Shown here in pieces: positions 2,676-6,161 of a stretch of DNA of 36,643 bases. The DNA comes from Candidatus Omnitrophota bacterium (GTDB lineage: Bacteria; Omnitrophota; Gorgyraeia; B26-G9), in assembly GCA_018817585.1 (NCBI GenBank), contig JAHITE010000043.1, positions 1-36,643 on the forward strand. The letters run 5' to 3'. The stretch's first letter is position 1. Each line of letters starts with the position of its first letter. Position numbers and translations under genes: made by a program. The notes beneath the pieces were generated by a model. That model made no database searches, was not told the origin of the DNA, and saw only the letters and a list, made by a program, of their open reading frames with translations.

Positions 2676-3398
2676 TTGAATATCTGCAATAAACATGCCC
2701 GAATGTCGCTGTTTTCAATTTTCTCGATAATTGCTTTGATTCTGATTTGCGTGACTGCCTGGAAGATGCTGGATTTAGGCTTAACGACTTATAAAAAAAT
2801 CGCTATAGGTAAACATCAATCAATTTCCAATCAGACTTATAAATCAAGCCGTCCAAGCAGCTCAGGACAATTAGCTAAACCAGAAAAAATGGCCATGCCA
2901 AGCTCAATAAAAACTCAAACTAATCCCATACTGCAAAAACTGGCTGTGGGTTATTATCTGTTTAAAGCCAAGATGGAAAATAGCAATAACCAGCAATTAA
3001 TCGCGGAAAATGAAAAAACCGCGATTAATATCCTAAACAAATATGCCCAAGCTCAGGATCAGTATTTTAAGTATTATGGCTATTATTGCGATAGCCCGGA
3101 TAATCTGATTATTGAAGGCGAAAACAAGTACACAATAATTGACCCGGATCTTGGGGTGTTAAACAGCGCTAATAGCCCTAAAACCGCGGATAATGGCTAT
3201 TATTACGTTCAAATTAATAATTCCGCAGCAAGGCCCGGCCAAAGCCAGGAATACGGATTAAATGCCATACCTGCTGAATATGGCCAATCAGGAATTAACT
3301 CTTTTTGGATTGATCAAAAGGGAATTATTATCCAGGAAAACAATGGCGGAAAGCTGATTTATCAGCCAATGCCTGCGGATTATCCCAGCCAAAATTAA
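2676..3398 (+). CDS. Membrane-anchored pseudopilin-like protein
   Basis: A 240-residue protein starting at a TTG, supported by AAGGAG eight bases upstream. Residues about 10-33 form one hydrophobic segment, followed by a Ser/Pro/Lys-rich linker to about residue 90. The rest (EKTAINILNKYAQAQDQYFKYYGYY..., ending FWIDQKGIIIQENNG) resembles the globular part of pseudopilin-like proteins, which have an AxxxLxxxxxAQxxY helix and a terminal 'F-x-x-D-x-x-G-x-I' strand. It lacks the GFTLxE prepilin cleavage signature, so it is probably a single-pass membrane protein with an external domain rather than a processed pilin. Function unknown; the family assignment is only by pattern. Confidence 0.55.
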   Translation: MNICNKHARMSLFSIFSIIALILICVTAWKMLDLGLTTYKKIAIGKHQSISNQTYKSSRPSSSGQLAKPEKMAMPSSIKTQTNPILQKLAVGYYLFKAKMENSNNQQLIAENEKTAINILNKYAQAQDQYFKYYGYYCDSPDNLIIEGENKYTIIDPDLGVLNSANSPKTADNGYYYVQINNSAARPGQSQEYGLNAIPAEYGQSGINSFWIDQKGIIIQENNGGKLIYQPMPADYPSQN

Positions 3399-4520: not shown

Positions 4521-4570
4521 TAAATAAAAAGCTCCTTAGTTTTGCAAATAACTAAGGAGCTTTTTATTTA
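4521..4570 (-). terminator. Intrinsic terminator of the exported ROK-like gene
   Basis: Perfect 21-bp inverted repeat (4521-4541 with 4550-4570) around an 8-base loop. The core stem is AAGCTCCTTAGTT and is followed by a T-rich run on both strands. It lies 22 bases past the stop of the minus-strand gene and could also stop plus-strand readthrough. Confidence 0.9.
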
Positions 4571-4592: not shown

Positions 4593-6161
4593 TTAAATCG
4601 CACTATTAACCAAGGCAATTGCTGCTTTGGATTCCGCGCTTTTCTGATGAACAGCTTCTGCTGAAGATTTGCTTAAAGCCGTATGCATAATATCCGCGTC
4701 TGTCGGCTTATATGAGATTAATTCCCGGTCATAAGTCATGTTTGAGCGAACCATGCCAGCGGCAATATCTTTTGCTTTTGACTTATCCATACCAAAAGAT
4801 ACCAACCCATTAGTCAGACTTTGCCTTATACTGTCAATATAGATATCCACTGTTTTACCCTGTTCATATACGCCTTTGCCTAAATTCTCGTTAACTCCGG
4901 AAATTAAGGCCCAGTGTTTGATGAATTCCTGATCAGGATAAGCAGCAAACAAAGCGGCATGCGCTTCTCCCACTTCCCTGCCTATGGCTTTTATCCAGGC
5001 AATTGCTTTTTCGTCGCCCTGAGCGGCTTTTTCCGTAAGATTTTCCACATTATAGCCATTTAATCTTGCTTCCGCTAATCTATTATTTATGCTTGGTCCG
5101 GAAGTCCGGTCTTCAAAATCTCTGTCCCCATCCGCCCAATTAAGCATTGGATAATCCGGATTATCCAGAACAAACTGGTTTGGATTTGCCAAATAAGCTT
5201 TTCCCTTATCTCCTGATTTTCTGATTATTTCATCAGGAGTATTGCCTGCTTCGATAGGATGATTGCCCAATGAACTGGATCCTACCCATTGATAATGATA
5301 TGCATTGTCAGCGCCTTTTTTCCGCACCAGATTATGGCCAAACTCTTTAAACTCGCCCTTTTCTCCAGCATAAAATTGATTATTTTTCTTTATAGCTGAA
5401 TTTATTCCCCCACCAATAATTGTTACCCCTCCGTCAGGATAATCATTTAAGGTTCCTTTGGGAGAATAGGTTTCTCCTTTTAAAGCGCCTTCGGCATCAT
5501 TAACCATTTCCACATACGCTGATATGCCATATACGGAAATTTTTTCCTGTAGTTTTGCTCTGAACGGATATTTATCGCCAATCGGCAAATTAGGCACTGG
5601 AAATTCTGAGCCAAAAATACCCTTTACTTTGTCTACCGGGCCGCAGAGATTGGAGCTTACTTTATTAATAGCTTCTGGAGAAACTTGATTTTTCTTCAGC
5701 AAAGTATTAATTGTTTCCGCAACCAGATTCATAATCGCATCTGCATCCGCGTTTTTAGCTCCGCCTTCAAAGACATCATTCCATTTTACTTCCAGGTAAT
5801 CAATAATATCATTGTTTCCGTTATTTAAGGATATTGCCACTTTATTGCCGCCCATGGAAATAGATACAAAGCGGTAGTTTTCTCTGGCAATATCCAAAAC
5901 ACTGTATTTAACCTGCGGCATTTGCTGATTATTTTCCGGATTTCTTAAAAGAGAAACAGCATTAGATTTAGTTATTCCTGAAATAATTCTTCCAAAATCA
6001 GCAGGATTAACCTGCTGCAAAGACGGTGCCAGGGTAGAACTATCCTGGGCTTTACTAGCGGTTATTCCTAGTGCAAAACAGAAATTAGTTAATAAAAATG
6101 ACTGGGTAATGATTACACAAATTATTTTATTGCACGTCGTGGGTCTAAAACGCTGAGACAT
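4593..6161 (-). CDS. Exported ROK-kinase-like protein
   Basis: The frame opens at a GTG (6167), but AAGG seven bases before the ATG at 6161 favours the latter: 522 residues. Residues about 10-38 form a signal peptide; the mature protein starts with SSTLAPSLQ. Residues about 95-500 follow the ROK-family plan in order: a degenerate phosphate loop (ISMGGNK at 101-107 in place of DxGGTK), GPVD at 174-177, PNLP at 190-193, the catalytic-type NDAEGALKGE (D222), a Gly-rich TIIGGGIN (248-254), GEFKEFGH (H275) and ED-x-TSGPSINNR (350-360). The Cys cluster CxCGxxGCxE that binds zinc in ROK kinases is absent. An exported protein would meet no ATP, so it is more likely a sugar- or glycan-binding or scaffold protein than a kinase. 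Own promoter and terminator, no operon partner. Confidence 0.75.
   Translation of the reverse strand: MSQRFRPTTCNKIICVIITQSFLLTNFCFALGITASKAQDSSTLAPSLQQVNPADFGRIISGITKSNAVSLLRNPENNQQMPQVKYSVLDIARENYRFVSISMGGNKVAISLNNGNNDIIDYLEVKWNDVFEGGAKNADADAIMNLVAETINTLLKKNQVSPEAINKVSSNLCGPVDKVKGIFGSEFPVPNLPIGDKYPFRAKLQEKISVYGISAYVEMVNDAEGALKGETYSPKGTLNDYPDGGVTIIGGGINSAIKKNNQFYAGEKGEFKEFGHNLVRKKGADNAYHYQWVGSSSLGNHPIEAGNTPDEIIRKSGDKGKAYLANPNQFVLDNPDYPMLNWADGDRDFEDRTSGPSINNRLAEARLNGYNVENLTEKAAQGDEKAIAWIKAIGREVGEAHAALFAAYPDQEFIKHWALISGVNENLGKGVYEQGKTVDIYIDSIRQSLTNGLVSFGMDKSKAKDIAAGMVRSNMTYDRELISYKPTDADIMHTALSKSSAEAVHQKSAESKAAIALVNSAI

What the first reader, a model, noticed from the sequence alone, without database searches (positions are those of the whole stretch)
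4593..6161. Exported protein with the ROK kinase fold but lost zinc and phosphate motifs
A signal peptide precedes a domain that follows the ROK plan from start to finish and keeps D222 of the NDA motif, yet the phosphate loop is SMGGNK and the zinc cluster is gone. A kinase fold outside the cytoplasm, without ATP, suggests reuse as a glycan-binding or structural protein.
Basis: partly seen in the sequence, partly recalled or inferred. Interest (0 to 1): 0.65.

Follow-up and report, generated by a model that had tools for sequence, protein, structure and literature searches.

The report
Exported sugar-kinase relative without ATP site
An uncultured bacterium makes a protein with the fold of a glucose kinase but an altered ATP site and a probable export signal; its closest relatives are domains inside giant proteins that also carry sugar-phosphate enzymes, so it is probably a sugar-binding piece of a little-known exported enzyme system.

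Summary
ORF 4593-6161 (-), 522 aa, has a signal-like N-terminus and a ROK domain (Pfam 43.7 bits, cut-off 22.9). Its predicted structure (pLDDT 88) matches E. faecalis glucokinase at Z 28.3. The residue aligned to the metal Asp is Ser102, the phosphate Thr is Asn106, GTG is GGG, and the zinc cysteines are gone. Asn221, Asp222, Glu273 and His276 remain.

These losses are not drift: Ser replaces Asp in 16 of 23 aligned domains, 20 such domains form one clade against 20 other ROKs (100/99), and rough dN/dS is 0.08-0.14.

The genome is an Omnitrophota MAG. Nearly all relatives are domains of 1,000-35,000-aa ORFs, some beside phosphoglucomutase, phosphoglucose isomerase, 4-alpha-glucanotransferase, phosphorylase or starch-synthase-like domains. 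The N-terminus belongs to a conserved class (signal helix plus LSP/LAP tag) with 29-41 members per genome in four genomes of this family.

Best reading: an exported sugar-binding ROK domain without ATP-kinase activity. Location and ligand are untested. Other tagged proteins keep nucleotide motifs, so an ATP-free compartment is not supported.

The parts
4593..6161 (-). whole gene, 522 aa, ATG start (ORF opens at GTG 6167)
   Evidence: RBS-like AAGGAAGG before the ATG
6069..6161 (-). signal-peptide-like segment, residues 1-31 (hydrophobic 13-31)
   Evidence: hydropathy; N-terminal profiles A5/A6/A7; no SignalP available
6024..6041 (-). SSTLAP tag, residues 41-46, the L[SA]P motif of the N-terminal class
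4593..5894 (-). ROK-fold domain as modelled (433 aa plus stop)
5841..5858 (-). SMGGNK (102-107) in place of DxGGTK
5493..5501 (-). NDA (221-223), catalytic-base position D222
5331..5348 (-). KEFGHN (272-277), sugar-contact motif ExGH kept
4521..4570 (-). perfect 21-bp hairpin just past the stop codon, probable terminator
   Evidence: (-25.3 kcal/mol, z -7.46)

Best explanation
It is a probably exported (or N-terminally anchored) single-domain member of a distinct ROK clade, here called S-ROK, found almost entirely in Omnitrophota. The domain has kept the ROK hexose pocket and lost the metal and phosphate contacts needed for ATP phosphoryl transfer, so it most likely binds a hexose or hexose phosphate outside the cytoplasm without phosphorylating it, as a sugar-capturing, sensing or scaffold module, in the way ROK repressors use the same fold to sense sugars. 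Its sisters sit inside giant proteins, some next to phosphoglucomutase, phosphoglucose isomerase, 4-alpha-glucanotransferase, phosphorylase or starch-synthase-like domains; the window copy is a stand-alone version carrying the shared N-terminal signal plus LAP tag. Shown: fold, residue pattern, clade, fusions, shared N-terminus. Inferred: export, loss of kinase activity, sugar binding, role.
For: Fold: model, Z 28.3 to glucokinase 2qm1 and 27.2 to the ROK repressor Lmo0178. Motifs: S102/N106/G251 align with PsNagK D6/T10/T132; in PsNagK D6N/A lost at least 1000-fold activity and T10V and T132V lost activity (PMC10031466, passages). Kept: N221, D222, E273, H276, matching PsNagK N104, D105, E154, H157; all four invariant in the 9-row A4. 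Clade: 20 against 20, support 100/99. Constraint: dN/dS 0.08-0.14. Fusions. N-terminal class.
Against: No ligand, activity or location was tested. Residue equivalences come from sequence alignment, not from superposed coordinates. Deeper S-ROK branches keep GTG and the Thr, so some phosphate binding may persist. Enzymes with Asn or Ser in this loop use ATP (acetate kinase, recalled), so ATP binding is not excluded. G001 of the same genus has no match at 1e-3, so the gene is patchy. No glucan or sugar-phosphate enzyme was recognised in 10 of the 17 other S-ROK ORFs scanned.
Confidence: 0.55

Rival explanations
1. An active phosphotransferase with another donor or a rebuilt site: D222 deprotonates the sugar, and the S-x-G-G-N/D-K loop plus the conserved HYxWVG/HPIExG insert handle a phosphate donor other than Mg-ATP (polyphosphate, pyrophosphate, a sugar phosphate).
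For: Catalytic Asp kept in 22 of 23 domains; Ser and Lys of the loop invariant in 9 of 9 rows, as are H200, Y201, W203, H212, P213 and E215 of the insert (A4 numbering); a polyphosphate/ATP glucomannokinase (1woq) is a fold relative at Z 21.6.
Against: The ROK repressor-like 1z05 keeps the N-D and E..GH pattern (alignment), so these residues do not need catalysis. In PsNagK the Asp replaced here is essential. No donor is indicated by the genome data.
Confidence: 0.2
2. The N-terminus is an uncleaved membrane anchor, or is processed so that the domain acts in or at the cytoplasm; the function is regulatory, near the membrane.
For: Other proteins with the same tag carry cytoplasm-type domains with intact motifs: GGDEF, HATPase, HD-GYP, SecA-like, and weak NadD- and guanylate-kinase-like matches.
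Against: Basic residues, then a hydrophobic stretch, often ending in AWA or AFA; such a signal is expected to leave the C-terminus outside. M23 peptidase and GH76-like domains, normally extracytoplasmic, carry the same tag.
Confidence: 0.17
3. A decaying by-product of domain shuffling with no present function.
For: Patchy: no match in G001, same genus; no close homologue is stand-alone.
Against: dN/dS 0.08-0.14 against three homologues, though dS is near saturation; invariant motifs across 43-77% identity; intact ORF with RBS-like site and terminator-like hairpin.
Confidence: 0.08

Closest known systems
ROK glucokinases/hexokinases (2qm1, 3vov) and NagK
   Same: fold over the whole domain (Z 28.3, rmsd 3.0 over 303 residues to 2qm1); N-D and ExGH sugar residues
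   Different: DxGGT to SMGGN, GTG to GGG, no CxCGxxGC, an insert with HYxWVG and HPIExG in its place, signal-like N-terminus
ROK repressors (Lmo0178 5f7p/5f7r, Mlc 1z6r, 1z05)
   Same: near-equal fold score (Z 27.2 to 5f7p); best NCBIfam match is NagC (1e-6, 28.2 bits, far under its cut-off of 650); sugar pocket kept
   Different: Pfam at E<=1 finds no helix-turn-helix; signal-like N-terminus instead
Zinc-less NanK of Fusobacterium nucleatum (PMC5458393)
   Same: lacks the cysteine-rich zinc motif with the active site otherwise retained (passages)
   Different: FnNanK keeps the DxGxT motif; the window protein does not
Omnitrophota giant ORFs (PMC10066038; up to 85,800 aa cited in PMC12057145)
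   Same: relatives of the window domain lie in such long ORFs
   Different: the window gene is short (522 aa); the shared N-terminal tag and the sugar-phosphate enzyme domains are not mentioned in the passages I read
Secreted glycogen enzymes of Chlamydia trachomatis (PMC4829429, PMC9251005)
   Same: housekeeping glucan enzymes (GlgA, GlgP, MalQ, PGM) given a secretion signal
   Different: type III signals on separate enzymes there; signal-peptide-like starts on fused domains here; TIGR00881 sugar-phosphate transporter over cut-off in 0 of 4 genomes

Membership tests
ROK family (PF00480 superfamily) | ROK fold | tested here: met
ROK family (PF00480 superfamily) | catalytic Asp in the active-site loop (NDA) | tested here: met
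   D222
ROK family (PF00480 superfamily) | ExGH motif | tested here: met
   E273-H276
ROK sugar kinase (active, ATP) | N-terminal DxGxT nucleotide motif (feature list from PMC5458393, passages) | tested here: not met
   S102-M-G-G-N106
ROK sugar kinase (active, ATP) | CxCGxxGCx(E/D) zinc motif | tested here: not met
   only 4 Cys, three of them in the signal region
ROK sugar kinase (active, ATP) | ATP-dependent sugar phosphorylation | not testable with these tools
   needs an enzyme assay
ROK repressor | N-terminal DNA-binding helix-turn-helix | tested here: not met
   Pfam at E<=1 finds only ROK; the N-terminus is signal-like
Omnitrophota tagged class (defined here) | signal helix with I-x-x-x-F-L core plus L[SA]P soon after | tested here: met
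Omnitrophota tagged class (defined here) | actual export | not testable with these tools
   no SignalP or experiment

The most novel reading that the evidence does not exclude
Omnitrophota of this family run a dedicated export class: a sequence-conserved signal peptide (compare the Gram-positive YSIRK class, recalled) followed by an L[SA]P sorting tag (comparable in layout to PEXEL of malaria parasites, recalled) that sends some 30-40 proteins per genome, many of them polyenzymes and among them glucan and hexose-phosphate enzymes, to an extracytoplasmic compartment or into a host or prey cell. The S-ROK domain would be a former hexokinase converted there to an ATP-independent sugar-binding module, giving an independent counterpart of Chlamydia's secreted glycogen metabolism.
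Probability: 0.3. Interest if true: 0.85.

Novelty: new variant of a known kind. Interest (0 to 1): 0.6.

Why it matters
Giant Omnitrophota proteins are known but described as having few recognisable domains. A shared N-terminal tag, recognisable sugar-phosphate enzyme domains and a ROK clade with a converted active site give concrete handles: a reporter can test the tag, and one domain (433 aa) can be expressed to ask what it binds. It is also a clean case of an ATP-dependent sugar-kinase fold keeping its sugar pocket while its phosphate site is replaced, apparently in steps (Asp to Ser first, then Thr and GTG).

Tried and rejected
Single-protein scan of genome contigs found nothing; the alignment scan then gave 8 loci. 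Viral contigs: none. An ATP-free compartment as the cause of the motif loss: rejected as a general rule, because tagged proteins of the same genome keep nucleotide-type motifs and another long ORF of the same genome carries a ROK with GIDLGGT (contig C53). The starch-synthase-like domain fused to S-ROK in G316 has lost the KxGG Lys (PYAGLGDV), but the tagged one in the window genome keeps KSGG, so there is no common trend. Exported PGM-PGI in the window genome: only a 488-aa PGM frame on C19 and a 460-aa one on C62, neither in a giant ORF. Host-use evidence: no ADP/ATP translocase found (but its control rang nowhere, so inconclusive); TIGR00881 over cut-off in 0 of 4 genomes, with weak matches in 2 of 4. 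The terminator scan missed the hairpin; fold and repeat search show it. NCBIfam on six tagged proteins: four without any match, two with weak ones. Literature: no held paper has both words Omnitrophota and ROK; the search for periplasmic or pseudokinase ROK proteins gave nothing apt in the 8 listed of 128. The library lacks bioRxiv, so West-Roberts 2023 was seen only as a citation. Passages of PMC11573180 and PMC8542988 were read and gave nothing on this protein.

Full report
What is there. The gene at 4593-6161 (-) encodes 522 aa from an ATG preceded by AAGGAAGG; the ORF finder opens it at GTG 6167. Past the stop lies a perfect 21-bp hairpin (4521-4570; -25.3 kcal/mol, z -7.46). Upstream on the same strand are DUF3137 and LemA genes, downstream a response regulator. 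The only strongly hydrophobic stretch is residues 13-31. Pfam gives ROK at 43.7 bits (cut-off 22.9), with the best stretch over the first half of the domain only.

Fold. An AlphaFold model of the 433-aa domain, built with eight homologous rows from the search for related loci, has mean pLDDT 88.2 and pTM 0.84. Foldseek's top matches are ROK hexokinase 3vov, glucokinase 2qm1 and ROK repressor 5f7q; VIA-align gives Z 28.3 to 2qm1 (rmsd 3.0, 303 aligned), 27.2 to repressor Lmo0178 (5f7p) and 26.6 to 3vov. The scores are close, so the fold does not choose between kinase and repressor.

Active site. Numbered from the ATG, SMGGNK is 102-107, NDA 221-223, GGGINS 250-255, KEFGHN 272-277. In P. shigelloides NagK, D6 binds the metal (D6N/A at least 1000-fold down), T10 and T132 hold phosphate, D105 is the base, and N104, D105, E154 and H157 are among the sugar contacts (PMC10031466, passages read). 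By sequence alignment the window has S102, N106 and G251 for D6, T10 and T132, but N221, D222, E273 and H276 for the sugar side. So the sugar side is kept and the donor side is replaced. Zinc loss alone leaves the site intact in FnNanK (PMC5458393, passages). The repressor-like 1z05 also keeps the N-D and E..GH pattern, which shows that these residues can serve binding only.

Relatives. In 58 related genomes 13 had a match at 1e-3; the close ones (57-74% identity) are G006 (two copies) and G009. A profile over 384 genomes of the phylum gave 226 with a match at 1e-10, most of them ordinary ROKs of about 300-350 aa matching only the first 190 positions; a separate group matches more of the domain and lies in open frames of 935 to 35,009 aa, G027 (392 aa) being the exception beside the window. 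Named records: seven loci from Candidatus Omnitrophota MAGs and one from an Endomicrobiales MAG. In 23 aligned domains the Asp position is Ser 16, Arg 3, Lys 1, His 1, Asp 1, gap 1; the catalytic Asp is kept in 22 of 23, and E with H of ExGH in 15 of the 22 with letters. Thr at the phosphate position and GTG survive in many deeper members but not in the six nearest the window, which suggests stepwise loss. Twenty S-ROKs are one side of a branch (100/99) against 20 others that include an ordinary ROK, a ROK repressor and a GIDLGGT ROK from a long ORF, all of the same genome (seven rows were dropped beforehand, listed in Tried and rejected; the tool warns of long branches). dN/dS to three homologues is 0.083, 0.106 and 0.140 with dS 1.8-2.6, near saturation.

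Fusions. Seventeen S-ROK ORFs other than the window were scanned with Pfam, four of those also with NCBIfam. Sugar-phosphate or glucan enzymes were recognised in 7: PGM (G006 twice, G009), a PGI-like domain (G009; NCBIfam match to a transaldolase/PGI fusion at 1.6e-50), GH77 (G047), phosphorylase (G330), starch-synthase type (G316), and a glucosamine-6-phosphate isomerase type with PIG-L and 2-hydroxyacid dehydrogenase (G099). Three had others (RmlD in G235, acyl-CoA dehydrogenase in G081, a weak RamC_N in G121); seven had nothing besides ROK or nothing at all (G112, G350, G296, G290, L079, L080, own C98), though in L079 the neighbouring ORF has PGM domains. The G006/G009 PGM and G009 PGI stretches keep TASHN or TASHS, DxDxDR, EESGG, RPSGTEP and SKSGTTGET (sequence; motif meanings recalled). 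Outside this count of 17: the 35,009-, 12,589- and 5,334-aa ORFs, the 3,793-aa ORF of G148, two long G027 ORFs (L025, L073), all unscanned, and the stand-alone G027 protein (ROK only).

N-terminal class. A profile of three N-termini (window, G006, G009) found 31 places in the window genome at E<=10, 19 of them under 1e-3; the 16-row profile found 32 under 1e-3 in G000 and 41, 29 and 37 in G001, G006 and G009. The consensus is FKxISxxLIQAFLxxDxAWA...LAPxLxIN. To test the LAP part apart, I used the signal half alone (A7): of 13 matches not used for the profile with E<=0.1, 10 have L[SA]P within the next 40 residues (9, one read), against 12 of 956 interior 40-residue stretches. That control comes from fetched open frames of the same genome, antisense frames included, not from the whole proteome. 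Outside G000, 25 of the other 116 genomes drawn from the phylum had matches, mostly to the signal half; by my transcription the 89 matches outside G000 have a median open frame of 1,732 aa, 70 of them 1,000 aa or more. All 30 matches whose DNA I read (14 in this family, 16 in others) lie within 52 residues of the upstream stop; [LF][SA]P follows in 14 of 14 of this family and 9 of 16 others. Long ORFs offer more chance matches, but chance matches would not sit at ORF starts.

What else carries the tag in this genome: a 9,619-aa ORF with SecA-like, M23, GH76-like and starch-synthase-like domains; others with GGDEF, PPDK_N, HATPase, HD plus deaminase domains, or weak guanylate-kinase- and NadD-like matches. 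Several keep textbook motifs (read by eye). That weakens the idea of an ATP-free site as the reason for the ROK change, and leaves open export into another cell, anchoring, or a role other than catalysis.

Known context. Giant ORFs are common in Omnitrophota with few annotated domains (PMC10066038, passages), and giants of up to 85,800 aa are cited (PMC12057145, passages). Chlamydia secretes GlgA, GlgB, GlgX, GlgP and MalQ by type III signals (PMC4829429, abstract and one section) and a PGM (PMC9251005, abstract). I found no held paper with both Omnitrophota and ROK. The set of glucan and hexose-phosphate domains fused to S-ROK resembles Chlamydia's list, but the window genome shows no exported PGM-PGI and no TIGR00881 transporter, so a shared physiology is only a proposal.

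Verdict. Observation confirmed, interpretation partly supported. It is a ROK-fold protein, not fileable as a ROK kinase because DxGxT and the zinc motif were tested and not met; it works most like a ROK sugar-sensing domain and is probably exported.

Noticed in passing
L112/L113 (window genome contig C31, ORF 1687-30543): 9,619-aa tagged ORF with SecA DEAD/cross-linking, M23, GH76-like and GT5 starch-synthase domains in one chain.
   Followed up: partly
L028 8678-11482 (-), contig C98: 935-aa ORF with a signal-like start in which the C-terminal half of an S-ROK precedes an N-terminal half: a circular permutation or two broken copies.
   Followed up: no
L137, contig C53: ORF of at least 1,850 aa spanning the whole contig, with a ROK that keeps GIDLGGT between a HAD-like and a PHP-like stretch (last two by eye).
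   Followed up: partly
G034:C1 near 1156745, G140:C9: Open frames of 45,379 and 35,009 aa in Omnitrophota relatives; the first holds a match to the signal half of the tag, the second an S-ROK.
   Followed up: no
L080 5964-13703: An Endomicrobiales MAG has a 2,580-aa S-ROK ORF with a signal-like start, 43% identical over the domain: transfer or common ancestry outside Omnitrophota.
   Followed up: partly
L021, L023: The PGM-ROK giants of G006 (C111) and G009 share neighbours (HemB-like, radical SAM and Trk-like transport ORFs, by eye); the window gene lies elsewhere.
   Followed up: no
window 2676-3398 (+): 240-aa protein with a hydrophobic start and a DUF2950 match (5.7e-8).
   Followed up: no
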